From Treponema sp. (lineage in GTDB: Bacteria > Spirochaetota > Spirochaetia > Treponematales > Breznakiellaceae): a stretch of 64,000 bases of DNA. Below are positions 15,456 through 60,711 of this stretch, one piece after another. The stretch is taken from assembly GCA_031276295.1 (NCBI GenBank), contig JAISNI010000072.1:1-64000 (forward strand), given 5' to 3'. Below the pieces are notes generated by a model, which did not search any database, was not told where the DNA came from, and saw only the letters and a program-made list of their open reading frames with translations. The position numbers were made by a program, and so were the translations under genes. Every line of letters begins with the position of its first letter. Position 1 is the first letter of the stretch.

Positions 15456-16172
15456 ATGACTAAAAATTCGTCTTTCTTTTTTAAAACGCTCCTGTTTGTT
15501 ACGGGGATTTTCATCATTGCTTTAGCTTACAATCTTATACAGGGGGGGCATGAACCGTACGCGGGGGATGCTTTTATGTGGGCGTCCATTGTCGTCATGT
15601 ACCTTGTCCTTTTCTGCCCCTTTTTGTTTTCCGCAATCACCGTCAAGAATTTTTCGGGGAAGATACCCTCCCTTACGGCGGTATGGACCGGTATATTTCT
15701 ATACATTCCCCTTTCGATTGTCGTTATCTTCCTCTTAAAAAATTTTATTCTTTCTATAAATGCGGCTTTGATTGTGCAGGCCGTTTTGCTTTTTCTATAC
15801 GCGCTGAATATCTATTTCGGATACTTTGCGTCTTCCCATGCCGTACAGGTTGCCGAAGATGAGGCGGAAAAGAAGATGTACCTTACCGAGATTAAATCGA
15901 AGGCGGCATCTTTGGCGCTCAAAGCCGGCGCCCTTCCCCCCGAATACGAACAGATACGGAAAGAACTTAAACAGACGGCGGAAGACATCAGGTATATTTC
16001 CCCGGTAGACGGCGGTAAAGGCATGGAGTTGGAGCTCCAGATAGTAAGCTCCCTGGATCTCCTCATTCAGTACTGCGGCGCCGCTTCTCAAGGCAGCCGC
16101 CACATATATTTTGAAGAAGAAACTAAAAAACTGCGGACGATTGTCAAGGAAAGGAAAATTTTGCGTAATTAG
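15456..16172 (+). CDS. hypothetical membrane protein with C-terminal coiled region
   Basis: Starts MTKNSSFFFKTLLFVTGIFI after GGGGAG; about four hydrophobic segments. The upstream part of the listed ORF overlaps the SPFH gene and is unlikely. Confidence 0.75.
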   Translation: MTKNSSFFFKTLLFVTGIFIIALAYNLIQGGHEPYAGDAFMWASIVVMYLVLFCPFLFSAITVKNFSGKIPSLTAVWTGIFLYIPLSIVVIFLLKNFILSINAALIVQAVLLFLYALNIYFGYFASSHAVQVAEDEAEKKMYLTEIKSKAASLALKAGALPPEYEQIRKELKQTAEDIRYISPVDGGKGMELELQIVSSLDLLIQYCGAASQGSRHIYFEEETKKLRTIVKERKILRN

Positions 16173-16188
16173 TGGCAGGAGGTATGCC

Positions 16189-18075: not shown

Positions 18076-18078
18076 ACA

Positions 18079-19080
18079 ATGGCCCAACTCCATTTTGAAG
18101 TTGATACCTCCCCCATGGCCAGGACCGTTGAATCGGTAAAGGGCCATGTGAACGGGGTAACCGCGGCGGTAACCGTTATGGAAGCCGCGGTTATAGCGGC
18201 GGAAAGGGAATCTTCAAGAACCATCTGCGAAAATGTAGATAACGGTTTTTACGTGATGGTTAAATCGCAGATAAGCCAAAAGGCAATCGCCGCCTATACC
18301 GAAATGACCAGTAAACAGGGAATACTCCTGCAACTGGCAAAGGCACTGGATAATGTTAAACAGCAGATGCTTGCCGATTTTAATATGATAAGCCGGCGTT
18401 ACTTTAAACTGTTCCAGTCCCTCAATAAGGCGCTGGAAACACGGATAAAGGAACTGGATCGCCCCGCGATAAAAATGGCCGAAATAAAGAAGTCCCTGGT
18501 CTATGACAGGCTCAAGGATAACAGTTCCACGGCCTTGAGCGCGGCAAACGAGACGACGGCCGTCATGCAGACCGCCCTCAGCGGGAAACTTAAAGTAAAA
18601 ACAAGAGATGCGATAGAAACACTCTACTCATCGGCAATGGAAAGCAAGTCGTACAACGATAAGCTCGCCGGTATACTTATTAAAGAAAGCTCCGAAACGG
18701 ATACCGGTAAAAACGCAGGCTCTCCGCTTGATTCCTCCAAGAATGACTACCGTTTTCTTCCCGTCATCTTTTGTTCCACGGAAAGCCTTCTTAACGGTAC
18801 GGAATTGATTGAAACCATACACACGGCCCAAACCGATTCATGGCAGAGTGCGGCGCCGATTATCAACGAGGTGAACAGGCGCGGTAATTCCCTGCCCTGG
18901 ATACGGGTAAGCGAAGAAGAAAAAAGTCTGGTTAAGGGTGAATTTGTTTCTCTTTGCGAAAGAGATGCTAGCGATACGGGAAATACCGGTACGGGAAACA
19001 CTATCGATGAAAGATTGGCCCATGAAATATTCCGCTTGTTCGATGAATCTTCCTGGGAGGTTCTAAAAAATGAGTTATAG
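18079..19080 (+). CDS. hypothetical helical protein, paralogue of the next gene
   Basis: Shares DFNMISRRYFKLFQSLNKALETRIKELDRPAIKMAE and LPVIFCSTESL...VSEEEKSLVKGEF with the 19070 gene. Confidence 0.85.
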   Translation: MAQLHFEVDTSPMARTVESVKGHVNGVTAAVTVMEAAVIAAERESSRTICENVDNGFYVMVKSQISQKAIAAYTEMTSKQGILLQLAKALDNVKQQMLADFNMISRRYFKLFQSLNKALETRIKELDRPAIKMAEIKKSLVYDRLKDNSSTALSAANETTAVMQTALSGKLKVKTRDAIETLYSSAMESKSYNDKLAGILIKESSETDTGKNAGSPLDSSKNDYRFLPVIFCSTESLLNGTELIETIHTAQTDSWQSAAPIINEVNRRGNSLPWIRVSEEEKSLVKGEFVSLCERDASDTGNTGTGNTIDERLAHEIFRLFDESSWEVLKNEL

Positions 19081-20140
19081 ACAGCAGTTTCACGATTCTA
19101 TCGAGGTAAGCGGCGTTGTATCAAGATCCGTAGGCCCAAGTCAAAACAGCCAGACCGTAAGCATTTCCTACAGTCAAACGGTCCCGCTCAATATAACCAT
19201 TGATGTTATTACCGATCCTTTTGACAACAGCATCGACCGCTGTAACGGTTCGCTGGATATGCTTACCGGCGCCGTTGCGGGTATGCACTCCGCCCAATGC
19301 GGGGCCATTCGGCAGACCGCGGCGGAAGTATCCCAATCCCTTATCAACGGTTTTTTCGGTACGATACGGACGGAGTTGTCCCAGCAGATACAGGCTTTGA
19401 ATAGTGCGATACAGGCCGACGAGGGGCTTATCCTTGAACAGGGCAAGGCGGTAAGCAGTCAGAAAAACGTTATGGAAACGGATTATAACCGTATCGGTTC
19501 CCGTTATGTCGGTATTTTCCGCGATTTGGACGATGAATGCCATAAAAGAATATACGCGCTTGATAAACCGGCGTTTATGCTTTCGGAAAAGGTCCTTAAA
19601 AAAATTATCGGTGAAGCGGGGCTAAACGCTTCGGCAAAATCTCTTATCACCATACAGGAAGAATCATCGGCCAAAACGATGCTCGTTATTTCCAGCCTGG
19701 CAAGAAAGGTCCATGACGTACTGGAAACCCTGCGCAACTATATTACCCAGGAAAAGAGGTTCTCGTCGCTTACCGATTCTTTTATGGAAAATGAAAAGAT
19801 TGAAGAAAAGAAAACCTTTCTCATGCCCGTCATATTCGTAGAACAGGACGGCCTTGAAAGGGATGCAAGCGAGTACGCGGAATTTCTGCCGGAAAGCGTA
19901 CCGCCTGACAAAAGGAAGGAAATCGGCGGAAAGGTACGGTCGGTTTGCGGGGACGATTCTGTTTCCTCATGGGCCCCTGTATCAGAAGAGGAGAAGGAAC
20001 TGTTGAACAGGGAATTCGGCGCGCTTTCGGAATCCGCGTTTGCTGAATCCGACGGGAATACGGAGCGGCGTATTTACAATACGCTTATGGGGCTCTGGCA
20101 GAACAGTTCGTTGTTTACCGTGTCAAGGAAAAATCATTAA
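19070..20140 (+). CDS. hypothetical helical protein, paralogue of the previous gene
   Basis: DYNRIGSRYVGIFRDLDDECHKRIYALDKPAFMLSE and MPVIFVEQDGL...VSEEEKELLNREF; 11-bp overlap with upstream gene. Confidence 0.85.
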   Translation: MSYRQQFHDSIEVSGVVSRSVGPSQNSQTVSISYSQTVPLNITIDVITDPFDNSIDRCNGSLDMLTGAVAGMHSAQCGAIRQTAAEVSQSLINGFFGTIRTELSQQIQALNSAIQADEGLILEQGKAVSSQKNVMETDYNRIGSRYVGIFRDLDDECHKRIYALDKPAFMLSEKVLKKIIGEAGLNASAKSLITIQEESSAKTMLVISSLARKVHDVLETLRNYITQEKRFSSLTDSFMENEKIEEKKTFLMPVIFVEQDGLERDASEYAEFLPESVPPDKRKEIGGKVRSVCGDDSVSSWAPVSEEEKELLNREFGALSESAFAESDGNTERRIYNTLMGLWQNSSLFTVSRKNH

Positions 20141-44839: not shown

Positions 44840-47467
44840 CTACTTACTTAATATCTTCAATATGCCGTTGAGTACAGGGTTAGTGGACAGGGCTATATTT
44901 CTGATCTTCACCCAATTATTCATGATCTCCTTTTCGTTTTCAAAGCGGGTGTTCATTTGTTTTTCCAGTAGCTCCATTTTTGATTTATTCAGTTTGCTTA
45001 AATTCTTCCCTGTTTCCATGAACACATCGGCATCGTCAAGAGAAGAGATAAAGACAAGATATTCGCAAAGCGGTTTAAATTTATTTATTTCATTGCTTTG
45101 CTTCAAATTGTACTGCATACAATTATCCAGGAATTTCCGGCGGGATTTTTTGGTCATGTTAAACAAGGCATAGACGGTTTTTACATCTTCCGCCTTTGTG
45201 CAATATTCGGAAATAACCGGTTCAATCCATTCAATGTACTTGATCTGTTCTTCTTCACTTAAACATTCCAAATCGTACCGTTCATAACCGGAATAGCGGA
45301 TAAGTTTGTCTTTTCCGTTATTAAAATCTTCGGGCAGATACTCGGTAACAATAATCCCCGCCGCAAAGAGTTTAAGCCTTTCCCCAAGCTTTTGTTTATT
45401 TTTAATAATATTAATAATAATATTTTTAAGCATTTCAATTTCTTCACCGGATGGTTTTGCAAGATCGATATTTTTGATGATATGTTCAGAAAGCTCATTT
45501 ATAAAATCCGCTTTGAGTCTATGTTTTAAAATCAGATACAGAAGACCGCGTTTGGCCTGTTCAACATCCCCGGTATTGGATTTTAATAATTTATTATAAT
45601 AGCCGGTGAGGATTCTGTCGGAATATTCGGTTCTGTACCGTTCATATTTCATAACAATTCTTTCCAGATGTTCCTCAAAAATTTCTCTGCAACTCTCCAT
45701 ATCCCTTGTATCACTCAGCATTACATCAAAAAGACAATAAACACGATCATAGCTTTTAACTTTTAAAAGACAATCAAAAACAATTCTCTTATGGTCATTC
45801 GGATATCTGCTTACGGTTTTATAATAATATTCCCATAATGTTTTTTCATTGACGTAATCGTTAGGATGCCTGTTCAGCACATTGTTTATGTTACATATCA
45901 CCGATACAAGATAGGCGCATTCTACCCCAAAAGTATTGATAATATAACGGACGAGAGTTTCACTCATCTCAGGGTGGGATATAAAAACAGATTCCAGTAT
46001 CGCATTGAACAGCGCGTCTACATCCGGCCCGGACGGAACGGATTCGGAAGTTTTCTTCCTGACATACCGGAATATACAGTAAATTATTACTTTTATTTTT
46101 CCAATATCGGCGTCATTATGCCGTAAAAACGCTTTTAACTGTTCCCTGTTCACATCTTTTGCAAATTCAGGTATAAGGTTATATCCATACCGGCTGCACA
46201 GGGAATCGAAATCATTAAACACATCCTTAAATTCAAGGTCTTTAAAATTCGGATCGGAAAAATTGTTTAATATTCTGTATATAATACAGTCTCTGATGCC
46301 TAATCTTTCTTCATTTGAAAAATCTTTATACGATTTAAGGATAAAATACAGAACATCCTTAAAATAGGCTCCGGGTAAATTAACAATAGCCCGCATCTGC
46401 TTTAAAAGTTCCCTTACAAAATTGAGCAGTACGTTTTCTTTTGAATATTTTTCCGCAAAGACGGAAGCCTTCATGAAAATTTCATGGGCGCTGTTTTCAA
46501 TGCCGTCGCTTCGCAGGACATACAGCGAGTATGCGTCAAGATATTCAAGATCGGCTTCGGTATAGCTATAACCTTCACCGAGGAATAGGTGAAAGGACTG
46601 CATAAGATCGTAAGAGATAGACATGGATAACTCCAAAAATTCGATAAAATCGTTTTTAAGATTAAATTCCGCTGTTTCCCCTTTGATAATGTCAAAAACA
46701 AAGTACTGTGAAGGATTATCCCTGCCGTAGGAAGTTCCGTCCGGAACTACTCCACATATCTGCGAATTCGACAGGGACGGGGTACTTTCGTATGTAGTAA
46801 AATTAATGTTCCGTATATTTTTTAAAGGCAGGGCAAATTCAAGCGCGGCAATCCAGAAGATGATATTCTCACTTTCATCACAGATAACAATACGTTTTTT
46901 TTCGGTATTGAAAGATAGAAGCGCATAAAACATATTTTTGTATATATCCATTCTGTTTTCATTATTGAGGAATGCAATAACCGAATCGACGGTTATCTTT
47001 GTTCCCTTTGACAGAACGGGAACGGGAAGAAAGCCGGGCGGGTCGGGGTTATTCACTTCGTCCTTATCCATAGAACTGCGGAGCATTTCACTTTCAAAAA
47101 ATTCGCACGGATAATTCTGAAAACATCTGTCATTGAAAATGACCGAATGGCTTAAATAATTACCGAATCTTCCCCCGGCAGGCATATAATCTCTACCGAT
47201 ATAGGTATTAAGCGTAACCGCGTATGTACCATCGTCAATTTTTCTGAACGTAAAAGCCCGCGGCATGGTTTTTGCAATTTCTTCCGTCATAATAAGGCCC
47301 GGTTTTAAGGAGGGCGGCTGGTAACCAAACAGGCTCCTCACATTGTCCGATTTGGAATATTTAAAATCCTTATCATAGGAGAAGACCTGCTGTCCATCGT
47401 TGACCCCGTCAATACCCCGCTTGCAGGAGGTATATATTATCTGATGTAATTTGCTATCCGTTTCCAT
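44840..47467 (-). CDS. GTPase-associated protein 1 (GAP1-N2-like)
   Basis: N-terminus LHQIIYTSCKRGIDGVNDGQQVFSYDKDF...VRSLFGYQPPSL...RFGNYLSHSVIF resembles the GAP1 N-terminal domain; last gene of the GTPase/Hsp70 operon. Confidence 0.65.
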   Translation of the reverse strand: METDSKLHQIIYTSCKRGIDGVNDGQQVFSYDKDFKYSKSDNVRSLFGYQPPSLKPGLIMTEEIAKTMPRAFTFRKIDDGTYAVTLNTYIGRDYMPAGGRFGNYLSHSVIFNDRCFQNYPCEFFESEMLRSSMDKDEVNNPDPPGFLPVPVLSKGTKITVDSVIAFLNNENRMDIYKNMFYALLSFNTEKKRIVICDESENIIFWIAALEFALPLKNIRNINFTTYESTPSLSNSQICGVVPDGTSYGRDNPSQYFVFDIIKGETAEFNLKNDFIEFLELSMSISYDLMQSFHLFLGEGYSYTEADLEYLDAYSLYVLRSDGIENSAHEIFMKASVFAEKYSKENVLLNFVRELLKQMRAIVNLPGAYFKDVLYFILKSYKDFSNEERLGIRDCIIYRILNNFSDPNFKDLEFKDVFNDFDSLCSRYGYNLIPEFAKDVNREQLKAFLRHNDADIGKIKVIIYCIFRYVRKKTSESVPSGPDVDALFNAILESVFISHPEMSETLVRYIINTFGVECAYLVSVICNINNVLNRHPNDYVNEKTLWEYYYKTVSRYPNDHKRIVFDCLLKVKSYDRVYCLFDVMLSDTRDMESCREIFEEHLERIVMKYERYRTEYSDRILTGYYNKLLKSNTGDVEQAKRGLLYLILKHRLKADFINELSEHIIKNIDLAKPSGEEIEMLKNIIINIIKNKQKLGERLKLFAAGIIVTEYLPEDFNNGKDKLIRYSGYERYDLECLSEEEQIKYIEWIEPVISEYCTKAEDVKTVYALFNMTKKSRRKFLDNCMQYNLKQSNEINKFKPLCEYLVFISSLDDADVFMETGKNLSKLNKSKMELLEKQMNTRFENEKEIMNNWVKIRNIALSTNPVLNGILKILSK

Positions 47468-47480: not shown

Positions 47481-49832
47481 TTAGTTGAATGTACGTACAA
47501 TCCTGAAGCCGACCGTATTGTATTTTCCCTCGGGTTCCCTTGCGCCGCGGAACGCCGAACGAAGATTTACGGCCTGTTCGCCCCACGAGCCGCCGCGGAC
47601 AACACGCCGGAGGCGTTGCGGGGGCGGAGAAGGCGGAGATGGAGGCGTCTGATAGGACGGCGGGTACGGCTGCATCTGCCCCCGCGCGGGAATTATATAG
47701 TAACCGGAGGGAGCATCCGGTTCGGCTATCGCGCTATAATTTCCGTAAACGTCAAAACACCATTCCCTGACATTTCCGTGCATATCGTAGAGCCCCCAGG
47801 CATTCGATGAAAAGGATTGAACGTGGACCGTTGCCGATCCGTTGTAGTTGGCCGAATCTGTTGAAATTGTATTTCCGGTATTAAAGGCCGTTGCAGTACC
47901 GGCGCGGCAGGCAAATTCCCATTCCGCTTCCGTAGGCAAACGGTATCCGTTTGCGCCCGTGTTCCATGTTACCTGTGTACCGTTTACCGTATACGCTCTT
48001 TCAAGCGCCTCAAGGTCGCTCAATGCGTTACAGAAGTTAATCGCGTCATACCATGTTACCATTTCTACCGGCCGGTCCGCCCCTGTAAAATAACTTGGAT
48101 TGTATCCCATAACTTCCGCATACTTAGCCTGTGTTATCTCAGTCTGCCCCATATAGAAACTATCGACACCCACATCATGCGGTGTTTCATCATCCTCCCG
48201 GCCGGGCTCGGTAACGGAACTCCCCATCGTGTATACTCCGGCAGGGATATAATTCAGGTCTATACCGATAGTATTTACAAAAAAACCGCGGAACGAGAAT
48301 GTTAGATTAAATTCACGGTTGCTTTCTATATTTATATATTCTTCTTCAAAGAAATACTGATAATCTATCCTGACCAAATGTTTTCCCTCGTCTATTCCGT
48401 TTATTCTTTTAGGCTCGTCCGGCGAGACTGTACCGATTAGTTTATCATTAAGATAGAGCGTGCCCTCTTCCTGAACATGAACAATAAGGCTGCCTCTTGT
48501 AAGAGCGTTGTTTATGAAGAACGCGGCAATACCGAGAATACCGAGGATGCCGCAGAAGACCAGACCTGCAATTAAGGCTTTTACGGCAACTTTCGGTTTC
48601 CTGGGCGGACGGTAGAATCCTTTGCCGTCAAAGACGCCATTCTCTTTCATAAGAAAGAGGAAGGGATCTTCTATGCGGTGCGGGCGAGGCCGGTCGATGG
48701 TACGGTCGGCTTTCGGATTATTATGGAGGCCGAGCGCGGATACGGCAAAATAGGCGTAATGGGAGTAGTTTACGTTAAGTTCCGTTATAAACGCGTCGGC
48801 GCCCCAGTTTTTGAGCAGGCTCTGTATTTCGCTGCTGACGCTATGACAGTCCGATAATACCAAAGACCGCGCATTACAATGGGGGCTTGCTTCGGATATG
48901 GTACAACCCGGAGGCACAATGCCCGCTATAACATCATATTTGGAAAATACGACGGCAATCGGCGTTTTTATTTTCTCAGTAGTCTTAATGTTTCTATCGT
49001 AACGTATAAGCCGGGAAACCCGGTTTATTATATCGCCGGGATTTGCCGCAAGCCGCCAGTCAACCGAAGAAGCCCGGGTGATAATATTCTCATCAAGCTG
49101 ATTCGCCACCGCGGGTATCTGGAGAGGATCAATAAGAAAAATGATTCCGGCGGATTTACAAATATACCTGTTTACCGTATTCATGGTATCTTCGTCATTA
49201 AGATCTTCACCCGCGGTATCAAAAAAAACAAAGGTATAGGAATCGATAGTTTCTTTAAAGATCAATTTACGTCCGACATTCAGGGTGAAGATAAGGGGCC
49301 GGTATGCGCCGTTGTTGACATCAACCTGGGAACTTCTGGTAAGATCCAGCTTCTGCAAATCCACATACAAACGCCGGGCAAAATTCTGCTGGTAGCGCTG
49401 CATGGTATCGTCAAAGCCTACAAGCGATCCCCCGAACAACTGCGGGGCAATTCGGTTTATCAGTTCGTTGATGATAACGCCGACAAAATGGCTCTTGCCG
49501 GTATCGCGGGAACCTACAATCGAGATGATCATATCCCTGCCGGTCAAGGTGCTTTCGGGCAGGGCATTATGACAGGAAGGGCATATTACTTTGTATGTAG
49601 GTTTTCCGCACTGCGGGCAAACGGCGGTTTTTGGTACACCGAAGGATGTATTTGAAGTAACGGGAAATGTTTTTTTACCCTTTTTGGGCATATTGATATT
49701 ACCATTTTCGTATTTGGTCATCTCTATATCATCAAAATCCGGGCACCTGGTATTTATACAGCGGAATTGTATCTCCGAGAGAGCGTGTTTTTCAAAACAA
49801 TACGGACAGGTAAAGGTTTTGCTGCTTGCCAT
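47481..49832 (-). CDS. zinc-ribbon/TRAFAC-type GTPase with TM segment, PEGA-like region and FGE-sulfatase-like domain
   Basis: Two zinc ribbons; P-loop SIVGSRDTGKSHF; Walker B FFDTAGEDL; FSKYD; TM VKALIAGLVFCGILGILGIAAFFI; FGE-like YIPAGVYTMGSS...RLPTEAEWEFACRAGT...VRGGSW. Confidence 0.88.
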   Translation of the reverse strand: MASSKTFTCPYCFEKHALSEIQFRCINTRCPDFDDIEMTKYENGNINMPKKGKKTFPVTSNTSFGVPKTAVCPQCGKPTYKVICPSCHNALPESTLTGRDMIISIVGSRDTGKSHFVGVIINELINRIAPQLFGGSLVGFDDTMQRYQQNFARRLYVDLQKLDLTRSSQVDVNNGAYRPLIFTLNVGRKLIFKETIDSYTFVFFDTAGEDLNDEDTMNTVNRYICKSAGIIFLIDPLQIPAVANQLDENIITRASSVDWRLAANPGDIINRVSRLIRYDRNIKTTEKIKTPIAVVFSKYDVIAGIVPPGCTISEASPHCNARSLVLSDCHSVSSEIQSLLKNWGADAFITELNVNYSHYAYFAVSALGLHNNPKADRTIDRPRPHRIEDPFLFLMKENGVFDGKGFYRPPRKPKVAVKALIAGLVFCGILGILGIAAFFINNALTRGSLIVHVQEEGTLYLNDKLIGTVSPDEPKRINGIDEGKHLVRIDYQYFFEEEYINIESNREFNLTFSFRGFFVNTIGIDLNYIPAGVYTMGSSVTEPGREDDETPHDVGVDSFYMGQTEITQAKYAEVMGYNPSYFTGADRPVEMVTWYDAINFCNALSDLEALERAYTVNGTQVTWNTGANGYRLPTEAEWEFACRAGTATAFNTGNTISTDSANYNGSATVHVQSFSSNAWGLYDMHGNVREWCFDVYGNYSAIAEPDAPSGYYIIPARGQMQPYPPSYQTPPSPPSPPPQRLRRVVRGGSWGEQAVNLRSAFRGAREPEGKYNTVGFRIVRTFN

Positions 49833-49851: not shown

Positions 49852-51666
49852 TTAACCTTTAAGGACCCCGTTCTCCTTCATAATCCAGAGCAGCGGATCC
49901 TCAATACGGTGCGGGCGGGGACGATCTATCGTACTGTCATCCTTCGGGTTATTATGCATTCCCAACGCCGATACCGCAAAATAGGAATAGGCGGTGTAAT
50001 TTATATCGAGTTGGGTCATAAAGGAATCGGCTCCCCAGGTTTTCAGTAGGCCCTGTATTTCCGAACTAACATTGTATGCGTCCGTCGAATCAAATGTTTT
50101 TTTCGCGCAATGCGGGCTTGGATCGGATATGGCGCAACCGCGCGGGACAATGGGTTCTATGACGTCATACTTTGAAAACACCGCGGCGACAGGAATTTTA
50201 ATCTTTTCATTGGATCGGATGTTTCTGTCATACCGGATTAAATTCGATACACGGGCAATTATATCGTCAGGCCTTGCCGCCCGGCGCCAGTCAACCGAAG
50301 AAGCCCTGGATACGGTCCAGGCATCGAGCTGATTTGCTACCGCGGGTATCTGGAGAGGATCGAGCAGAAAGATAATGCCCGCCGATTTACAGATATACTT
50401 ATTCACCGTGTTCATGGTATCCTCGTCATTGAGGTCCTCGCCCGCGGTATCAAAAAACACAAAGGTATACGAATCTATGGTGTTCCTGTTGAACATTGAT
50501 TTATGGTTGACATTTAGGGTAAAGATGAGCGGCCGGTATGCGCCGTTGTTGACATCAACCTGGGAACTTCTGGTAAGTTCCAGCTTCTTCATATCCACGT
50601 ACAGATTCCGGGCAAAATTCCGCTGGTAACGCTGCATGGTGTCGTCAAAGGCCGCCATAGCCCCACCGAAAAGTTTCGGCGCAATTCTCTCTATAAGTTC
50701 GTTGATAATGACCCCTACAAAATGGCTTTTACCGGCATCACGCGAACCGACAATGGAAATGATCATATCCTTTCCGTTCAGGGTACTTTCCGGCAGGGTG
50801 TTGTGGCAGGAAGGGCAGACGATCTTGTACGTGGTCTTGCCGCATTCGGGACAGGCCGCCTGCCGTGGTAACGCGCGTGAAGATGCGCCAAAGGTCTTTT
50901 TCCCCTTTCGGGGTACGCTGAGATTCCCGTTTTCGTACCTGGTCATTTCAATGTCGTCAAAATCCTTACAGCGGGTATTGATACACCGGAACTGGGCGGA
51001 GGAATGTTTATGCTTTTCAAAACAGTAGGGGCAGATAAAATCGGGTTTAAACATCATAAAATTGTTCCTTTCTGAGATAGAAAAAAATGCTTTGAGGGCT
51101 ACTAATAATTTTCTTAATAGTCCTCCTGCTACTGCTAATAATTTTCCTACTAGTCGTCCTACTAGTCCTCCTCCTACTGCTGCTGTTGCTCCTACTCCTA
51201 CTCCTACATCTGCTATTTTTACTGCTGGTACTTCTGTTCCTACTACCAGTCCTACTACTATTGCTACTGTTACTACTAGTCCTACTACCAGTTCTACTCC
51301 ATCTTGTACTGCTAGTAGTACGCATGTTGTTATTACTCCTCCTACTGTTAGTAGTCCTAGTATTCCTATTCCTCCTACTAGTCCTACTACTACTGCTACT
51401 ACTTCTCTTGCTGTTTCTACTACTGCTTCTCCTGTTACTAATACTGCTTCTGCTGTTTCTACTACAGTTTCTATTGCTGTTCCTACTTCCGGTATTACGA
51501 GTCCTACTAATCCTATTACTGTTCCCGCTACCGCTTCCAGTACTACTTCCAGTTCTGCTTTTAATCTTTTTCCTGGTAATCTTATTTCTACTGCTAGCAA
51601 TCTTACTACTACCCCTGATAATAATGATAAACCGAATAATAATGATAACGCCGAATAAAAACCCAT
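49852..51666 (-). CDS. zinc-ribbon/TRAFAC-type GTPase, possibly with an N-terminal ~200-aa hydrophobic V/G/A-rich extension
   Basis: Close paralogue of the 47481 gene (SIVGSRDAGKSHF, FFDTAGEDL, FSKYDVI). Core could start at MMFKPDF (~51056, upstream AAGGAA) or at 51666 (upstream AGGGGG). Confidence 0.85.
   Translation of the reverse strand: MGFYSALSLLFGLSLLSGVVVRLLAVEIRLPGKRLKAELEVVLEAVAGTVIGLVGLVIPEVGTAIETVVETAEAVLVTGEAVVETAREVVAVVVGLVGGIGILGLLTVGGVITTCVLLAVQDGVELVVGLVVTVAIVVGLVVGTEVPAVKIADVGVGVGATAAVGGGLVGRLVGKLLAVAGGLLRKLLVALKAFFSISERNNFMMFKPDFICPYCFEKHKHSSAQFRCINTRCKDFDDIEMTRYENGNLSVPRKGKKTFGASSRALPRQAACPECGKTTYKIVCPSCHNTLPESTLNGKDMIISIVGSRDAGKSHFVGVIINELIERIAPKLFGGAMAAFDDTMQRYQRNFARNLYVDMKKLELTRSSQVDVNNGAYRPLIFTLNVNHKSMFNRNTIDSYTFVFFDTAGEDLNDEDTMNTVNKYICKSAGIIFLLDPLQIPAVANQLDAWTVSRASSVDWRRAARPDDIIARVSNLIRYDRNIRSNEKIKIPVAAVFSKYDVIEPIVPRGCAISDPSPHCAKKTFDSTDAYNVSSEIQGLLKTWGADSFMTQLDINYTAYSYFAVSALGMHNNPKDDSTIDRPRPHRIEDPLLWIMKENGVLKG
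51057..51666 (-). repeat. period-3 low-complexity tract (A at almost every third base on the minus strand)
   Basis: Minus-strand reading e.g. GTA GTA GCA GTA GTA GTA GGA CTA GTA GGA GGA ATA GGA ATA CTA GGA CTA CTA ACA GTA GGA GGA GTA ATA ACA ACA. Confidence 0.95.
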
Positions 51667-51677
51667 TCACTTTCCCC

Positions 51678-54674
51678 CTAATTTATCCTGTTCTCCGATC
51701 CGGTCTTCAAGCGCAGTTGGTTTTTCGCATAATCCGCATCGTCTTTAAAAAAGGCTTTTATATGGGTATCCCGCAGCAGGTTTTTTGGAATGGGAAAACT
51801 TACCTGAAAACCGCCGTTTATCTGCCTGGACGGTATCTCGCAGAAAAGGTTTGACGACGCTTTAAACATGGGCGTCTTACCGGTATCGGAGTATATTTCA
51901 ATATCGGGCAGCATACAAGCGGGGCTGTCCGCGTTGAATTCAAGGATCACCCGGCTCTCTCCGATGAGTTTTTTAGAAACGCTGACGGAGTAGGTGATGG
52001 TTTCCTTTGCGGCGTTATCAAAGCGGTAATCGGCCCCGCCTGAATAATCTTTCTCCGTTCCCGCGTAAAATTCGGCAAATACCGAAAAAAAATAATTTTT
52101 CTTTTCAATCTGATCGATGACAAGTACGCCGTCGTGCAGGTACTGCCTGACGGGGATAAATTTTCTTGAAGCGTTTTTATCGTTTATGTCTTTGGGGAAA
52201 CAGTCAAAACGGTACAGTACGATAAACCCGTTTGCATTTTTGGGCGGATCAATATAGATGTTGATCCTGTTATTAACTATCTTGACATCCTGTATCCGTA
52301 CGGATTCACGATTGCTGATCCGGCGTATGGTTCCGATAACCGCAGCCCCGGACTTTATAACAACCGGACATATAAATAAAACGTCTTCTTTACTATACTG
52401 AAAAACCGCTCCGGTAAGGCGTGCCGTCTGTAGGGGCAGCTTTCTCATGTCCTTTTCAAGCGCGTTAAGCGGAACCGTATCGCCGGGGTTGAAGGGCGGA
52501 TTTTTCTCCGCGCAGTAGAGCGTTACATTTTCCTTGTTCGGATTAATCCAGACCGCCTGGTACCTATCATTTTTTTGCGGCTTGATTTCAAACTCTTCAA
52601 CGGGCAGGGGCGGACTGGAAGGTATGCCCGATACCAGGACGCCGGGTGTTGCCTGCTTCCTGCCGTCTATGATATAGGCCAGCCGTACCCTGTACCGGTA
52701 TTGCCGGTCGTTGACAAGGCCGCTCTCGGTAAAGCTAAAGGGGGAATTGCATTGCAGGGCATCTTCCCTGCCGCCGTCAATCCTGAATATCTCGACAGAA
52801 GACCCCGGGGGGACGGCGTCCCATTCAAAGTGCAGTACGGCATTGCTGCCGCTTACCCTTACACCGGCAATTTCAAAAAGGTTGAGCGCGGGGGTCTTTG
52901 TTTGCAGGGGGTCGGAATAAACGCCGGCCCATTCGGCAAACACCGCATAGAAATACGGAGCGCCGGGAAGAATGGTTTTGTCGTTAAACGCGCACACGCT
53001 TACCCTTCCAAGCAATTCCCCGTCCTGTATGTTGACAGGTACGGCGTCTTTCTTTCTGACAACGGAATAAAAGATGCTGCTGTCCACCTGAGCGGGCGTC
53101 CAGCTTAAAACATTGGTGCGCATGGCGCCGTCGCATAGAACATTCAGCTCCGTCGGTTTCGGCGGAGGATTCTTTGCAAGCAGGTCCCGAATACCCGGTA
53201 GATCTTTGCAGATTTCAAAGGCTTTTACACAATTTTTGATGAGATCGGGTTTTGACGGAGCGGTCTGGGCCCTGGCAAAAAAGGTTTTGGCCTGGTTGAC
53301 GGCCGTATTAATTTCCTCTTCCAAATCGGCATCGTGAAACCCTGAATAGGATTTTTGAACGGCCTCGTACTGCCTCTTCGCGTCATAGTACCGTTTTTCC
53401 AGGGCCGATTTCCGCAGAGCCTCAATTACGGTACCGGCGCGCTTCTTATGCTCTTCCAGGCGGGCATACAGTTCTTTGATTTTTCCGTATCCGCTCCAGT
53501 GCGCTTCAGCTTCTTTAAGATGCAGTTCGGCAACGGCAAAGTTCATATCCGCGACGGCATAATCCGCCTGCTCGCAAAGGGCTATGGCCTTATCAATATT
53601 TTCAAATTTAAACCCGCACGTGCATACTTTGATGTTTGAATCGTTCTCTACCCCGCACGCGGGGCATTTAATGACAAGGTTCTGTCCGCAGTTCCGGCAT
53701 TGCTTCCGTCCGTCGCCCGTATCATTGATGGCGCCGCACCGGCCGCATATCTTGACGGCGTCGTTTTTTGCCGTGCCGCCGCTCTGAGGATTGTAGAATA
53801 TTTTTTCTGTTTTACAGAAGGCAAGCAGCAATTCTTCCGCGCGCGCTTTATCTTTGAAAAGTTTCGTCAGTTCTTTAATATACTCATTACCCTGGTCGGG
53901 GGTAAGTTCGTTATTTATCGATATTCGCGCTATTTCTTTTACTTCATCCAGTATTGTTTTACGCTTACGGTATTCAAGGTACTCGTCATAAACAGCCTTG
54001 CCTTTTTCATCCTTAAAGGTAAGTTCGCATTGGCCGCAAAGTTTCGATCCGCTTCCGTTTATGGATTTGTTTGTTTTATCATAATCGGCCTTCATCTCTT
54101 TCGCTTTTTGTAAAAGATCCTTACAGGGGAGCTTATCGGCATTTGTACCTTTGAAAAGAAATTCGTAGAGGTTCGCGGCGCTAAAGGAATCCAGGAGCGG
54201 TTTTATTCCGTCAAAAACAGCCGCGTTTTGCGGTTTGTTTTTATAGTATTTATCGTAAACGCCCTGATAATCAACCGTTACCGCGGCAATTTTCATTCCC
54301 AGTTTCCTGATCCGGCTCTTTACCATCTCCTCGGTTACACCGGATTTTGCCATACTGTCCGCAATTCTTTTTATTTCCTCCGCCTGTATATCACGGTTTC
54401 TTCCCAGTATTTTAAGTTTTTGATCAACGGGCCCGTATACGCCGGCGCAGGCTTCGTGGATCAACTGTCTGCGTTTTTCAGAATTGGCCATATCCTTACG
54501 GATCTCCGGCAACAACTGATGGTACCTGCGGTACTCAGGCCCATATTTAAAATGGTTAAAGTTGCTTGACCAGAATTGCGCTTTCTCTTCTATCCGTTTG
54601 ATGATTACGGCATCGTCTTCAACCGGGCGGGGATCAAATTCAAGTTCAAGGATTAAATACCAGTTATCGGCCAC
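51678..54674 (-). CDS. J-domain-like (no HPD)/zinc-ribbon/FN3-like multidomain protein
   Basis: N-term NWYLILELEFDPRPVEDDAVIIKRIEEKAQFWSSNFNHFKYGPEYRRYHQLL; CGRCGAINDTGDGRKQCRNCGQNLVIKCPACGVENDSNIKVCTCG; beta-rich repeats C-terminally. Confidence 0.7.
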   Translation of the reverse strand: MADNWYLILELEFDPRPVEDDAVIIKRIEEKAQFWSSNFNHFKYGPEYRRYHQLLPEIRKDMANSEKRRQLIHEACAGVYGPVDQKLKILGRNRDIQAEEIKRIADSMAKSGVTEEMVKSRIRKLGMKIAAVTVDYQGVYDKYYKNKPQNAAVFDGIKPLLDSFSAANLYEFLFKGTNADKLPCKDLLQKAKEMKADYDKTNKSINGSGSKLCGQCELTFKDEKGKAVYDEYLEYRKRKTILDEVKEIARISINNELTPDQGNEYIKELTKLFKDKARAEELLLAFCKTEKIFYNPQSGGTAKNDAVKICGRCGAINDTGDGRKQCRNCGQNLVIKCPACGVENDSNIKVCTCGFKFENIDKAIALCEQADYAVADMNFAVAELHLKEAEAHWSGYGKIKELYARLEEHKKRAGTVIEALRKSALEKRYYDAKRQYEAVQKSYSGFHDADLEEEINTAVNQAKTFFARAQTAPSKPDLIKNCVKAFEICKDLPGIRDLLAKNPPPKPTELNVLCDGAMRTNVLSWTPAQVDSSIFYSVVRKKDAVPVNIQDGELLGRVSVCAFNDKTILPGAPYFYAVFAEWAGVYSDPLQTKTPALNLFEIAGVRVSGSNAVLHFEWDAVPPGSSVEIFRIDGGREDALQCNSPFSFTESGLVNDRQYRYRVRLAYIIDGRKQATPGVLVSGIPSSPPLPVEEFEIKPQKNDRYQAVWINPNKENVTLYCAEKNPPFNPGDTVPLNALEKDMRKLPLQTARLTGAVFQYSKEDVLFICPVVIKSGAAVIGTIRRISNRESVRIQDVKIVNNRINIYIDPPKNANGFIVLYRFDCFPKDINDKNASRKFIPVRQYLHDGVLVIDQIEKKNYFFSVFAEFYAGTEKDYSGGADYRFDNAAKETITYSVSVSKKLIGESRVILEFNADSPACMLPDIEIYSDTGKTPMFKASSNLFCEIPSRQINGGFQVSFPIPKNLLRDTHIKAFFKDDADYAKNQLRLKTGSENRIN

Positions 54675-54683
54675 GATGTCCCC

Positions 54684-56789
54684 CTACCCGGCGCTTAACC
54701 CGGCAGCTCCCGTATTAATCGCCTGGGCTATCTTTGAAAATGAATGCCCCAGATCGGAAAGGCCGGTAAGCGCCGCAAATTTATCCACCGACGCTATCTT
54801 TTTAAGGAAGCTGTAATCCGCGGATCCAAACCCGATGGCCATAACTTCAATTCCGGCCTTATGGCATTTCTGTGCGGCTTTAACGGCTTTATCCTGGTAA
54901 CTCCATACTCCGTCGGTAAGCACCACGATATACCTGATTTGACGTTCCTTCTTTAACAAACCGCCCCGCAAAACGGAATAGGCTGTTGTAAAAGGTTCCG
55001 CGTCATTACATCTTCCTACATCGGCATCCCATATTCCATCCACCGCCTGTTTAGCCGAGCCGAAATTATCGGTAGGTTTAACCGTACAATCCGCTTTATC
55101 GGCAAAGGGGATAATGCCGATTCTTGTATAAGAATTATCCATCTCGTCGATGAATTTCTTCATGGCTTTTTTGGCTTCCCTGATAGGCGTACCGCTCATG
55201 CTCCCCGACACGTCGACGCAGAGCAGCACCTCAACGGAAGGCGGTTCCTGAACCGGAGCCTGATCTTGAGGGCATCCGTCTGTCCAGCGCATATCGCCGG
55301 GGATAGGTTCCGACCGTACCGGCAGAACACGGTTTGTCGCCTTTTGTACCGCGGAAACTTCTATGACGCCGTCAGCCGTATAATGATACGAAACGTCAAT
55401 TTCGGAAATGCTCGGATTGGTACGTTCAATGTTGGAAACCACGTATTTATAGAGGATACTGTTGTCCAGAGGGCGGCGTTCATCTCCCTGGAGAACGTAC
55501 ACTTCAAGCTCGCTTGACCTGGTGTTAAAATTGAATGTTTTTGTTTTGGAAGAAGGAATAGGCGTATTCTTTCTTATGATGGATTCATTGATATACTTTT
55601 CCCTGCCGGCGCTTTCCGCTATCATGCCGAGGGTATGAGCGCTGACATCCCGTACCTTTTTGGCCCCCCTTATGATGAGAAGCCGCCCCGCATTCCGGCT
55701 TGTACCGGGAAGCGTAAGCAAGCTCTGCCCTTTCTCGCTGATATTGGCTTTAATCGCCGCGCCCAGGGCTACCGCCTCGTCAACATTTACACCGCCCAAA
55801 GGTTCTTTTCCCGACATTTCCTTTATGTACTTGCCTATCATACGCATCCTTGTTGATCCCCCCACAAGGATGACGCCGTCAATGTTATTCCAGGAAAGGT
55901 TAATATCGTCAAGCAATCTTTCGGTAATATCCTTCGTCGTTCCCAGTAAAAATTCGGAAATGTTTTCAAAAAGTTCTTCGGTAATTTCGACGTTTCCCTT
56001 GACGCCTTTATAATTGAGAGGAACAGTAACACTGTCCCGCGCGGTAAGCTGTTTCTTGACATTCTCCGCGGTTACAAGGATGGAGGCGGTCATAGCGGCG
56101 TCTTCGGTAATATCCGCGCCGTACCGCTCCTTAAATTCGGAGGCAAGGTACCGCGCTATGGAGTCGTCCCAGTCTTTACCTCCCAGTTCATGGTTGCCGT
56201 CGCTTCCCCGTATGTTGATCTCGTCCCTATTAATTTGAGCGACGGTAACGTCAAAGGTGCCGCCGCCCAAATCATAGATTAAAACGGTTTGCTCGTCCGC
56301 TTTATCGGTTAATCCATACGCCAATGCCGCCGCGGTAGGTTCGTTGATTATTGCAAGCACGTTAAGCCCTGCCCGTTTACCGGCCTCGATGGTTGCCTGC
56401 CGTTCCTTCTCCGCGAAATAAGACGGAACGGTGATAACAGCCGCGTCAATTTCCGCTTTCGCCTGCCGTTCGGCTTCCGTCTTTAACTTTTCAAGCAGTA
56501 TGGCGGAAAAGTCGGTTGCCGTATAGTTTTTGCCGTGTATGGGTACGGAAAACGAATCTTTGCCCATGCTGCGTTTAAAAAAGGAGACGGTATGCTCCTC
56601 CCCCGCAAGCTGCATGTCCTTGGCCTCTTCGCCGTAGAGAATGGTTCCGTCGGATTTAAAACACAGCACGGACGGCGTTATCGCTTTACCGTAACCGTTC
56701 TTTATAACAACCGGTTTTCCCGCCGCCTCGTCAATCATGGCAACCACGCTGAAGGTGGTGCCCAAATCAATTCCTACCCTGATACCCAT
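54684..56789 (-). CDS. Hsp70 (DnaK-like NBD + SBD-beta) fused to a vWA domain
   Basis: MGIRVGIDLGTTFSVVAMID, IYDLGGGTFDVTV, VGGSTRMRMIG; C-terminal VLLCVDVSGSMSGTPIREAKKAM (MIDAS DxSxS) and VVLTDGVWSY. Confidence 0.93.
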   Translation of the reverse strand: MGIRVGIDLGTTFSVVAMIDEAAGKPVVIKNGYGKAITPSVLCFKSDGTILYGEEAKDMQLAGEEHTVSFFKRSMGKDSFSVPIHGKNYTATDFSAILLEKLKTEAERQAKAEIDAAVITVPSYFAEKERQATIEAGKRAGLNVLAIINEPTAAALAYGLTDKADEQTVLIYDLGGGTFDVTVAQINRDEINIRGSDGNHELGGKDWDDSIARYLASEFKERYGADITEDAAMTASILVTAENVKKQLTARDSVTVPLNYKGVKGNVEITEELFENISEFLLGTTKDITERLLDDINLSWNNIDGVILVGGSTRMRMIGKYIKEMSGKEPLGGVNVDEAVALGAAIKANISEKGQSLLTLPGTSRNAGRLLIIRGAKKVRDVSAHTLGMIAESAGREKYINESIIRKNTPIPSSKTKTFNFNTRSSELEVYVLQGDERRPLDNSILYKYVVSNIERTNPSISEIDVSYHYTADGVIEVSAVQKATNRVLPVRSEPIPGDMRWTDGCPQDQAPVQEPPSVEVLLCVDVSGSMSGTPIREAKKAMKKFIDEMDNSYTRIGIIPFADKADCTVKPTDNFGSAKQAVDGIWDADVGRCNDAEPFTTAYSVLRGGLLKKERQIRYIVVLTDGVWSYQDKAVKAAQKCHKAGIEVMAIGFGSADYSFLKKIASVDKFAALTGLSDLGHSFSKIAQAINTGAAGLSAG

Positions 56790-56804: not shown

Positions 56805-58436
56805 TTACAGTACGACAATTCGGCTTGAATGTTTCTTTGCCTCTTCAACCTCTTCCGTAGTCATAATGCCCTTTGCGTGCATTTCCGCCGTTATTTCCCT
56901 GTTGCCGGTTAGATCTTTCCCGTGCACCCTCAGCATACCTTCCTTGTTAAGGGTAAAGGTAACGTCAATGGGGGCATAGGACGGAAGATTTTCCGGCAGG
57001 GCAAGAACCGCAGTCCCGATAATCAAATCGTCATCAACATCGTAGTATTCATTCATATCGTCGCTTTCATAGACCACCAGTTCCACCGTTTCCTGATTCG
57101 CTTCCTGTGTTCCGAAATGTCCGGTAACATTGATCTCGTCCCCATCCATCCGGGTATTTTTGATTATAAGATTATTGCATTTCTCATCCTTATTATCAAC
57201 CAGGACTTTTAAGGCATAACTTTTAGTCGTTGTAACAATTATCTTCCGCGCCTTCCGCGTCTTTACGGCGCCTGCAAGGGTCTCTTTAAAAGCGCCCGCA
57301 TTCTCCACCGGCGGGAGCGCGGCGTCCCCGCCGCCGTTTTTAACATTCTCCTCCCAAGTGAATATGCTCTTCTGCTTGTTTATGTATACATCCACCGCAT
57401 AGAGGGCCGCACCCTGCGCCACCGCTTCGTCAGGATCCAGTACCCTCGGTTCCTTGCCGTACTTTTCTTTAAGTATCCTTGGCACCTGGGGCATCCTGGT
57501 TGAACCGCCTACCAGGATGATCTCATCTATTTCAACCCCCTTGGCGCGGGCAATGGTGAGGGCCTTTTCGGTAAGATCGACGGTTTTGTTTAGCAGGGCG
57601 GCGGTTAATTCATCAAAGGTTGCGCGGGAAATGGGGATACGTTCCCTCAAACCGGCCACATCAAGGGTTACCGGGGTTTCTTCCCGGCCTGACAACTGCT
57701 TCTTGGCATTCTCTACTTTAAGCCTCAGATCAGCCTGGGTGGATTCGTCAATGTCGTCATTGTAACCGGTTCTGGAATTGAATTCGCCGGCTATATATCG
57801 CATCACCGTTTCGTCCCAGTCTTTACCTCCCAGTTCATGATCCCCTTCGCAGCAGATAACCTCAATGACATCGGAACTTACCGCCATAACGGTAACGTCA
57901 AAAGTACCTCCGCCCAGATCATATACCAGAATGTTTTTCTTGCTCTGTTCCCTGGTATATCCATAGTAGATTGCCGCCGCAACCGGTTCGCTTATCACTT
58001 CCAGCACGTTAAGGCCGGCTATGTCCCCGGCTTTTTTTGTCGCATCCCGTTCCGCCGTGCCGAAGTAGGCTGGGCAGGTAATAACCACATCCTTCACTTC
58101 CTCGTTGATGAGCTTTGCCGCATCCTCGGTCAGCTTGCGCAGTATGTAGCTTGAAACTTCCTGGGGGGAAATATCCCTGCCGTTGTAACTGATGGCAAAA
58201 TCACTTTTCCCCATAAGGCGCTTAACAAAATCCACGGTCTGTCCCGGCTCGATAATTTTCGCATCCTTTGCAACCTGCCCAACCACAACATTCGTAGGGC
58301 TTGCAAAATTAACGACCGAAGGGGTTGTATTGGTTCCTTCGGAATTATTGATAACCGCCGCGCGGCCCGTTTCATCAACATAGGCAATACACGAATAGGT
58401 AGTACCCAGATCGATACCGTAAACAAATTTAGCCAT
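56805..58436 (-). CDS. Hsp70/DnaK-like protein lacking the helical lid
   Basis: YGIDLGTTYSCIAYVDE, VYDLGGGTFDVTVMAV, LVGGSTRMPQVPRIL; ends soon after SBD-beta (543 aa). Confidence 0.95.
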   Translation of the reverse strand: MAKFVYGIDLGTTYSCIAYVDETGRAAVINNSEGTNTTPSVVNFASPTNVVVGQVAKDAKIIEPGQTVDFVKRLMGKSDFAISYNGRDISPQEVSSYILRKLTEDAAKLINEEVKDVVITCPAYFGTAERDATKKAGDIAGLNVLEVISEPVAAAIYYGYTREQSKKNILVYDLGGGTFDVTVMAVSSDVIEVICCEGDHELGGKDWDETVMRYIAGEFNSRTGYNDDIDESTQADLRLKVENAKKQLSGREETPVTLDVAGLRERIPISRATFDELTAALLNKTVDLTEKALTIARAKGVEIDEIILVGGSTRMPQVPRILKEKYGKEPRVLDPDEAVAQGAALYAVDVYINKQKSIFTWEENVKNGGGDAALPPVENAGAFKETLAGAVKTRKARKIIVTTTKSYALKVLVDNKDEKCNNLIIKNTRMDGDEINVTGHFGTQEANQETVELVVYESDDMNEYYDVDDDLIIGTAVLALPENLPSYAPIDVTFTLNKEGMLRVHGKDLTGNREITAEMHAKGIMTTEEVEEAKKHSSRIVVL

Positions 58437-59223: not shown

Positions 59224-60711
59224 TTAATTCAAGGCGAAAGGCTTGGCGCTGAAAGTAACGTCATTCCATGCTTTCAGCATCGCGGCATCCGCGTTATTAA
59301 AAAGCCACTGCACAACCGGCATGACACCTTCGGGCCGGTAAGCGCCTTTATCCCTGGGATGTCCGATAGCGCTGCATGCAAAAAAACGGTTTCTTCTGAA
59401 TTTGAGGGTAATATTATTGAGGAATCCTTCCATGCCGTTATCAACAAGAAATTTCCTGCACAGGTAATCCTGGGTGTCATAAAAATCATCGTAACCGGCT
59501 GATCCTGAATTCATAAGGCGTGTTACCGCCGTTTTACCGATTTCATTATCAAGGCCCCCCGAATCAATTTTAGCTATCACCAGGGCCAGGGGAACGGAGG
59601 ACATTTTCTGTTCCGAAAGCCCCGTTACTTCCCGCAGCTTATTGAGAAAGGAATTGATTATACCGTTAATATCCGCGCTTCCTATTCCGGCTATATCCTC
59701 GGGACTTAACAGGTGTTCGTACTTATACCTGACGGCGGGAATAGCAAACGGATCAAGCATAAAAACAATGCCGTGGCAGTATTCGTACTGCTTCTGTACT
59801 TCGTTCTCGTTGTTATCGGTAAATACCTCTCCTGCAATATCGTAAATATGAATCAGCCGTTCGGGATTAAACTCGGGAGCTTTTATAAAAAAACTAAAGG
59901 ATACGGAACTTGCCTTGTTTCTGTCCAAACTGCGCTCGGTCATTCGTGTACTGCCCGTGTTATAATCCTTGAGGATTTCACGGTAGATTGCCGACTTCTC
60001 GCTGTTGTAAGGGAGTATTTCCCATTTTTTCTTCCCGGCAACCACTTCGATAAAATCCCGCGAAAAAGCGGTGATGAACGCGGTCTTCCCGACAGAACGC
60101 CCGCCTATCACCGGAATACAGAGGGGAACCGTTTCCCGGTCCATCAGCGGATGCCCGCAATGCGGACATTCGGATTGCAATTCCCGCCTTCCGTTAAAAA
60201 ATACCGCGGGAAGTTTTGCGCCGCAGGGACCGCTTCCGTTGCCGGTACAGGTATGTTTAAGTATCCCGTAAACACCAGGCGTTAGGTTGGTGTGTTGAGC
60301 CCCGCATTGAGGGCAGAGATAGGTCGGTATTAAAGATTTTTCCTTACATTCATGACACGCGGTAAATATCCTGTTCTTTATTAAATATATCCTGTCCACC
60401 GTCCATATCAAAGAAAAAGCGATATACACCAGCAGCATAAACCCAAGCAAAATAACGACGTTGGCGAGGGTCATGAGCAGGGTGATTATAGAACCGAAGA
60501 TAAATACCGCGAGGATTGCCAAACCATTAACGATGAACCCGAAAACCGCGATGATTTTGCCGCCGTCAAAATCAAGATTGGAAATATGAGCTTTATACTT
60601 CCCTATTGACTGAAAATTCCGAACCCACGCTCCCGCAACGGTATTCCCCAGATCACGATACCCCTTCCCAAAAAAATAACTCTTCCTTGACGGTTGTTCC
60701 TCTGCTGCCAT
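59224..60711 (-). CDS. membrane-anchored zinc-ribbon TRAFAC-type GTPase
   Basis: Two-TM N-terminus, Cys-rich ribbon, P-loop PVIGGRSVGKTAFITAF, Walker B HIYDIAGEVF, VIAKID. Confidence 0.85.
   Translation of the reverse strand: MAAEEQPSRKSYFFGKGYRDLGNTVAGAWVRNFQSIGKYKAHISNLDFDGGKIIAVFGFIVNGLAILAVFIFGSIITLLMTLANVVILLGFMLLVYIAFSLIWTVDRIYLIKNRIFTACHECKEKSLIPTYLCPQCGAQHTNLTPGVYGILKHTCTGNGSGPCGAKLPAVFFNGRRELQSECPHCGHPLMDRETVPLCIPVIGGRSVGKTAFITAFSRDFIEVVAGKKKWEILPYNSEKSAIYREILKDYNTGSTRMTERSLDRNKASSVSFSFFIKAPEFNPERLIHIYDIAGEVFTDNNENEVQKQYEYCHGIVFMLDPFAIPAVRYKYEHLLSPEDIAGIGSADINGIINSFLNKLREVTGLSEQKMSSVPLALVIAKIDSGGLDNEIGKTAVTRLMNSGSAGYDDFYDTQDYLCRKFLVDNGMEGFLNNITLKFRRNRFFACSAIGHPRDKGAYRPEGVMPVVQWLFNNADAAMLKAWNDVTFSAKPFALN

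What the first reader, a model, noticed from the sequence alone, without database searches (positions are those of the whole stretch)
51057..51666. 600-bp coding tract with almost exclusively A-ending codons, in frame with a GTPase
Read on the minus strand from an ATG at 51666 (preceded by AGGGGG, just after the upstream stop), nearly every codon is NNA (GTA, GGA, GCA, GAA, CTA, ATA, ACA), giving a hydrophobic V/G/A/L/E-rich ~200-aa segment that runs without a stop into the zinc-ribbon GTPase. With A fixed in one phase, three of the six frames are trivially stop-free, but the NNA frame could contain TAA or TGA and I see none. That suggests it is maintained as coding. The codon choice differs sharply from neighbouring genes. 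The paralogous GTPase at 47481 lacks the extension.
Basis: partly seen in the sequence, partly recalled or inferred. Interest (0 to 1): 0.88.

Follow-up and report, generated by a model that had tools for sequence, protein, structure and literature searches.

The report
A-ending-codon membrane segment fused to GTPase
In a gut-type spirochaete, one GTPase of a known bacterial conflict-system operon carries an extra, unique, greasy 200-residue front end whose DNA has A at almost every third position, spelling it with the codons the genome otherwise uses least; the segment looks like real protein, but why it is spelled that way is unexplained.

Summary
The tract is real. On the minus strand, core codons 51612-51094 are NNA at 158 of 173 positions, against about 40 expected for that protein with local codon usage. 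All 47 Val are GTA, all 27 Gly are GGA, and one NNA run is 47 codons long (next best in 26 neighbouring genes: 6). Of the three frames where stops are possible, only this one is open. It continues without a stop into a zinc-ribbon GTPase.

Independent signs favour coding. Alpha-helical hydrophobic periodicity appears in this frame only. The start codon sits behind the ancestral ribosome-binding site that serves the GTPase in relatives. A sister genome keeps a 14-codon NNA-rich remnant at the same place.

The operon is the HSP70/GrpE flavour of the published DO-GTPase/GAP1-N2 conflict systems. None of about 20 relatives of this GTPase outside the genus has the extension.

Best reading: a lineage-specific, fast-evolving N-terminal membrane domain on GTPase copy 1, partly grown by in-frame duplication. 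A second good start (51057) may also make a soluble form. Why the third base is nearly always A is unsolved. Uniform A gives a weakly structured mRNA, but uniform T would do the same. Membrane insertion and start choice are untested.

The parts
49852..51666 (-). Fused ORF, 604 aa: N-terminal hydrophobic tract plus zinc-ribbon TRAFAC-type GTPase (DO-GTPase copy 1)
51058..51666 (-). N-terminal extension, 203 codons, absent from all relatives outside the genus
51094..51612 (-). NNA core: 158 of 173 codons end in A; V/L/G/A/E-rich; helical periodicity in this frame only
51618..51658 (-). 18-bp in-frame tandem duplication at the start of the extension (LSLLFG/LSLLSG)
   Evidence: period 18, 2.2 copies, 91% matches
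51396..51472 (-). Imperfect 21-bp (heptad) repeat VVETAEA/VLVTGEA/VVETARE
   Evidence: period 21, 3.7 copies; codon lags 7 and 14 in excess
51674..51679 (-). AGGGGG, ribosome-binding site that serves the GTPase directly in relatives (TTAGGGGGA in L075)
51066..51070 (-). AAGGA, internal Shine-Dalgarno-like site 8 nt before ATGATG at 51057: possible second start giving a soluble GTPase
   Evidence: weakly structured start region
50725..50748 (-). Walker A / P-loop GSRDAGKS of GTPase copy 1
   Evidence: invariant columns; GTPase fold hits
47481..49832 (-). GTPase copy 2 (74% identical) with C-terminal TM segment and FGE-sulfatase domain; no N-terminal extension
44840..47464 (-). GAP1 (GAP1-N2 and GAP1-M domains)
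   Evidence: 58.9 and 51.7 bits, above curated cut-offs
51678..54674 (-). Zinc-ribbon protein upstream of copy 1 (position of the FNIII/DnaJ component of the system)
   Evidence: DZR, below cut-off; synteny
54684..56789 (-). HSP70-vWA protein
56805..58436 (-). HSP70 (DnaK) protein
   Evidence: translation; syntenic in L018 and L075
58442..59164 (-). GrpE-like protein
   Evidence: PRK14164, 19.3 bits, far below the equivalog cut-off
59224..60711 (-). Zinc-ribbon GTPase with N-terminal transmembrane segments
   Evidence: translation; small_GTP only 12.3 bits

Best explanation
The tract is a translated, lineage-specific N-terminal extension of DO-GTPase copy 1 in an HSP70/GrpE-type GAP1-N2 conflict-system operon. 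It forms several hydrophobic and amphipathic helices that anchor or insert the zinc-ribbon GTPase in the membrane, parallel to the C-terminal TM anchor of copy 2. It sits between the ancestral ribosome-binding site and the old GTPase start, so translation from 51666 gives a membrane form. Initiation at 51057 may in addition give the ancestral-length soluble form. Its uniform A third base reflects rapid growth from A-ending triplets by in-frame duplication, plus something, selective or mutational, that keeps the third base A. Shown: sequence, frame, synteny, codon statistics, uniqueness among searched genomes. Inferred: membrane insertion, two products, mode of growth, cause of the A bias.
For: A3 158/173, z = 23; the only open frame among those that can hold stops. 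Hydrophobic periodicity peaks at exactly 100 degrees in the NNA frame (z 2.8-3.0, P 0.0025-0.005), with no signal in the -ANN, +NNT or +NTN frames. Hydrophobic stretches with KD up to 2.9 lie at residues 1-30, 38-69, 82-124, 110-154 and 172-195, with basic clusters after the first and before the GTPase. AlphaFold gives helices throughout the tract, at low confidence. The ancestral SD directly precedes the fused ATG, in phase at both ends. Remnant in sister genome G054: 9/14 codons NNA (P = 0.0004) joined to a copy-1-like GTPase tail. In-frame 18- and 21-bp repeats. Membrane association is typical of this system class (PMC7159879).
Against: No homologue of the extension, so no Ka/Ks or conservation test. 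The tract is nearly or wholly absent in the sister species. The structure models are low-confidence. Exact repeats are not clearly above codon-shuffle expectation (k = 12, P = 0.06). A good internal start means the extension need not be made. Duplication alone does not explain why positions 1 and 2 vary while position 3 stays A.
Confidence: 0.66

Rival explanations
1. Low-complexity triplet DNA that expanded between the ribosome-binding site and the GTPase and is translated only incidentally; the hydrophobic protein has no function of its own.
For: Low sequence complexity, with most TRF arrays in the tract at periods that are multiples of 3; no homologues and loss in the sister species; NNA low-complexity stretches occur elsewhere as Q-rich or K/E-rich tracts (L043 and L049).
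Against: Helical periodicity specific to the coding frame; codon entropy 3.78 bits with zero stops over 189 codons; the third base is preserved while the first two diversify; a hydrophobic 200-aa N-terminus would probably be costly if functionless (inference).
Confidence: 0.17
2. Non-coding spacer or leader: the GTPase is translated only from ATGATG at 51057 behind AAGGA, as in relatives where it starts at the CPYCFEK zinc ribbon.
For: Good SD-start pair at 51070-51055 and a weakly structured start region; relatives start there.
Against: The ancestral SD is kept at the fused ATG, in phase over 203 codons with no stop; coding-frame periodicity.
Confidence: 0.08
3. The tract is coding on the other strand: in the +NNT frame it reads as a Pro/Thr/Ser/Ala-rich linker (51062-51658).
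For: That frame is open and has a mucin-like composition.
Against: Frames of type NNT cannot contain stops, so openness is trivial; antisense within a tight operon; no periodicity signal; NNT codons such as ACT (8%) are also rare here.
Confidence: 0.03
4. Codon-level regulatory leader: nearly all codons are decoded by U34 tRNAs, so the rate of translating the tract sets how much membrane-bound versus internally initiated GTPase is made.
For: Extreme use of the genome's rarest codons (CTA 3%, CCA 4%, CGA 4%); dual start sites.
Against: No direct evidence; no comparable arrangement was found in other genomes searched; ATA and CGA are not U34-decoded (general knowledge).
Confidence: 0.04
5. Assembly artefact in a repeat-rich part of a metagenome-assembled genome.
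For: Draft genome of 247 contigs, 83% complete; low-complexity DNA is error-prone.
Against: Frame intact over 604 codons; an independent sister genome has an NNA-rich remnant at the same site.
Confidence: 0.02

Closest known systems
DO-GTPase / GAP1-N2 GTPase-centric conflict systems, HSP70-GrpE theme (Kaur et al. 2020, eLife, PMC7159879)
   Same: Tandem zinc-ribbon GTPases, GAP1-N2/GAP1-M protein, HSP70, second HSP70, GrpE-like protein and zinc-ribbon protein in one operon; a membrane-proximal partner with TM segment and FGE-sulfatase domain.
   Different: Copy 1 carries a 200-aa low-complexity N-terminal hydrophobic extension. The paper reports N-terminal TM segments on about 13% of DO-GTPases; the passages read do not mention this tract or NNA coding. 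Both GTPases score below the Pfam DO-GTPase2 cut-off.
GTPase of Ruminococcus flavefaciens, Clostridiales and Ca. Paenibacillus intestinavium operons (L075, L073, L072)
   Same: 64-69% identical GTPase with GAP1 in the same operon.
   Different: The 405-aa GTPase starts at the zinc ribbon a few bases after the upstream gene where that gene is on the contig (L073, L075); no tract.
NNA-coded low-complexity tracts (Q-rich G088:C116, K/E/A-rich G149:C301, Pro/Gly/Ala/Thr linkers in small spirochaete genomes)
   Same: A uniform third base A across several amino acids.
   Different: Hydrophilic or linker-like and more repetitive; none is hydrophobic, as long and varied, or fused to a GTPase.

Membership tests
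DO-GTPase/GAP1-N2 conflict system (Kaur et al. 2020) | GAP1 with GAP1-N2 and GAP1-M domains next to the GTPase | tested here: met
   PF20013 58.9 bits (cut-off 24), PF20014 51.7 bits (cut-off 24)
DO-GTPase/GAP1-N2 conflict system (Kaur et al. 2020) | GTPases of the DO-GTPase family (Pfam DO-GTPase2) | tested here: inconclusive
   PF19993 aligns over profile positions 2-173 of 226 but with 14.6 and 13.7 bits against a cut-off of 27; P-loop and zinc-ribbon Cys invariant in the alignment; GTPase folds among structure matches
DO-GTPase/GAP1-N2 conflict system (Kaur et al. 2020) | Paralogous pair of GTPases with N-terminal zinc ribbons, one membrane-associated | tested here: met
   Copies 74% identical, conserved Cys pairs; copy 2 has a TM-like stretch after the GTPase (sequence)
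DO-GTPase/GAP1-N2, HSP70 theme | HSP70 and GrpE genes, with a second HSP70 protein | tested here: met
   HSP70 PF00012 371.8 bits for 54684-56789; second HSP70 at 56805-58436 read from its translation and synteny; GrpE only weak, 19.3 bits
DO-GTPase/GAP1-N2, HSP70 theme | FNIII-repeat protein fused to DnaJ or TPR | tested here: inconclusive
   51678-54674 shows only a zinc ribbon (DZR 20.8 bits, below cut-off) and no FNIII or DnaJ hit at E <= 1; it occupies that operon position
Any catalogued protein family for the tract itself | Match to Pfam, NCBIfam, PHROGs, PADLOC or PDB sequence | tested here: not met
   No family; only chance PDB hits, E >= 0.38; none in phages or plasmids
N-terminal membrane domain | Insertion in the membrane | not testable with these tools
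   Hydropathy and helical periodicity are compatible

The most novel reading that the evidence does not exclude
The tract is a codon-composition device: almost every codon needs a U34 wobble tRNA and is rare in this genome, so ribosome speed through it reports on that tRNA pool (a target of anticodon nucleases and of infection) and sets the balance between a membrane-anchored GTPase (start 51666) and a soluble GTPase (start 51057) in a conflict system.
Probability: 0.04. Interest if true: 0.88.

Novelty: new variant of a known kind. Interest (0 to 1): 0.5.

Why it matters
The operon type is published, but a GTPase with a 200-residue hydrophobic front end spelled almost wholly in A-ending, locally rare codons is not found in any other genome searched here. 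The third base is held while the first two vary, the reverse of ordinary coding sequence, so the tract offers a test of whether selection or a mutational process can fix one codon position. It also shows the variable part of these conflict systems reaching the N-terminus of the switch GTPase itself, possibly with two isoforms from one gene.

Tried and rejected
Tract protein against 201 family genomes: only coiled-coil chemoreceptors by composition (G117). Tract against phages, plasmids, Pfam, NCBIfam, PADLOC, PHROGs and PDB sequences: nothing useful. L025 A-phase run: a Lys/Glu-rich protein, unrelated. G000:C128 GTA/GGA run: the antisense of a Ser/Gly-rich surface-type protein coded on the other strand. 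mRNA-structure selection: the tract RNA is much less structured than mixed A/T-ending recodings (-101 versus -153 kcal/mol at similar GC), but all-NNT recoding gives -96, so it does not explain A in particular. FGE variable region: no second copy or template repeat in this genome. A search centred on another species failed because the centre must be a genome handle. Foldseek of the low-confidence tract model was not run, as it would be meaningless.

Full report
WHAT IS THERE. The minus-strand ORF 51666..49852 encodes 604 aa. Codons 204-604 are a zinc-ribbon GTPase (invariant Cys pairs and P-loop; GTPase folds among structure matches of the model). Codons 1-203 are the tract. In its core (51612-51094) 158 of 173 codons end in A, where the same protein with this window's codon usage would give 39.8 (z = 23). 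Val is GTA 47/47, Gly GGA 27/27, Glu GAA 13/13, Ile ATA 9/9. These codons are mostly uncommon here (CTA 3%, CCA 4%, CGA 4%, AGA 11%, ACA 12%, GCA 12%). The longest NNA run is 47 codons; in 26 other genes it is 6. The amino-acid repertoire follows the rule too: only 1.7% are residues that no NNA codon can encode, against at least 13% in any other 173-aa window of the set and at least 10% in hydrophobic 60-aa windows.

IS IT CODING? With A fixed in one phase, three frames are trivially stop-free. Of the three that are not, only the NNA minus frame is open (0 stops versus 63 and 20). Stop avoidance alone is modest (3.25 expected, P(0) = 0.019). A better test is protein periodicity: the hydrophobic moment spectrum of the NNA translation peaks at 100 degrees, the alpha-helix angle, with z 2.8-3.0 against global and local residue shuffles (P 0.005 and 0.0025). 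The other open frames show no such peak, and two ABC permeases in the window show none either, so the signal reflects amphipathic helices rather than being a property of any membrane protein. The sharpest segments are RLVGKLLAVAGGLLRKLL and the heptad-like VVETAEA/VLVTGEA/VVETARE. Part of this periodicity could come from 21-bp duplications, so it is supporting rather than decisive evidence.

SYNTENY AND ORIGIN. In Ruminococcus flavefaciens (L075) and a Clostridiales MAG (L073) the upstream gene's stop, the ribosome-binding site (TTAGGGGGA or TTAGGAGGA) and the GTPase ATG lie within about 20 bp, and the GTPase begins at the CPYCFEK zinc ribbon. In the window the same TTAGGGGGA now precedes the ATG at 51666, and 609 bp of tract separate it from the old start (ATGATG at 51057, with AAGGA 8 nt upstream). 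None of 12 further family-level loci has a hydrophobic N-terminal extension. The only other genome of the genus held here (G054; its contig matches Treponema sp. isolate Kf353_bin150) has lost copy 1. Between the upstream gene and copy 2 it keeps a start followed shortly by ATA AAA AGA AGA GGA GTA CCA (9/14 codons NNA, P = 0.0004), joined out of frame to the last 70 bp or so of a copy-1-like GTPase (LLWLMKEN, as in copy 1's LLWIMKEN). So an A-ending extension probably existed at this place in both lineages, with different sequence, and can be lost. The GTPase duplication is older (fourfold-site identity 0.43) than the species split (0.63-0.71). A rough calculation from these figures (mine, not a tool result) predicts about 79% A3 if the tract predated the split and drifted neutrally; 91% is seen. 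Either the tract was rebuilt recently or its third base is held.

THE SYSTEM. The operon matches the HSP70/GrpE theme of the GAP1-N2 GTPase-centric conflict systems (PMC7159879): GAP1-N2 and GAP1-M pass curated cut-offs, HSP70 and vWA are clear, GrpE is weak, and both GTPases fall below the DO-GTPase2 cut-off although they align over most of it. The paper describes membrane proximity as typical, N-terminal TM segments on about 13% of DO-GTPases, FGE-sulfatase effectors and highly variable components. Copy 2 here has a C-terminal TM-like stretch and FGE-sulfatase domain. In G127 a similar tandem pair has one plain GTPase and one with a C-terminal TM-like stretch and Sel1-like repeats. A membrane anchor on copy 1 therefore fits the theme, but this one is new in position and coding.

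HOW IT MOST LIKELY WORKS (inferred). Translation from 51666 inserts four or more hydrophobic helices (stretches; helices in the models, low confidence) and holds the zinc-ribbon GTPase at the cytoplasmic face, near copy 2 and the TM GTPase at 59224-60711. Initiation at 51057 may also yield a soluble copy.

THE UNSOLVED PART. Slippage and in-frame duplication explain multiples of three and low complexity, but not why positions 1 and 2 differ between repeat units while position 3 does not. Uniform third bases keep the mRNA open: MFE -101 versus -153 kcal/mol for mixed A/T-ending recodings at similar GC, but -96 for all-NNT. NNA coding also removes almost all start codons in a tract with five AGGAGG motifs, but T or C would do that too. 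Hydrophobic NNA tracts like this were not seen among the listed matches in 203 family and 395 phylum genomes.

LIMITS. One genome, one tract, no alignable homologue; metagenome collections could not be searched; no experiment. Coordinates and statistics are firm. Membrane insertion, dual starts and any role of the codons are inference.

Noticed in passing
L018:9085-9223 (same DNA in L074): Sister species carries a short NNA-rich remnant joined out of frame to the tail of a copy-1 GTPase: apparently a deletion scar of about 1.7 kb.
   Followed up: yes
window 47481-48240 (-): C-terminus of GTPase copy 2 is an FGE-sulfatase domain of the kind diversified by retroelements in other conflict systems; no second copy or template repeat of its last 200 bp was found in this genome.
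   Followed up: partly
L072, L073, L075, L087: The closest relatives of the GTPase outside the genus (about 62-69% identity) are in Firmicutes, while other spirochaete homologues are about 30%: the operon looks horizontally transferred.
   Followed up: no
L015 / G127:C4: Tandem near-identical GTPases, one plain, one with C-terminal TM-like stretch and Sel1-like repeats, paralleling the copy 1 / copy 2 split in the window.
   Followed up: no
window 2102-7346 (-): Genes resembling a papain-like peptidase (2102-3520), a TPR protein with CHAT-like peptidase motifs (3475-6360) and a further TPR protein: perhaps another conflict-type module; judged from translations only.
   Followed up: no
window 14270-20140 (+): SPFH-like protein with zinc ribbons, TM protein and two similar-looking proteins (18079-19080, 19070-20140), function unclear; judged from translations only.
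   Followed up: no
L043 / G088:C116 and L049 / G149:C301: Other family genomes contain Q-rich and K/E/A-rich tracts also written almost wholly in NNA codons: uniform third bases in low-complexity proteins may be a wider habit.
   Followed up: partly
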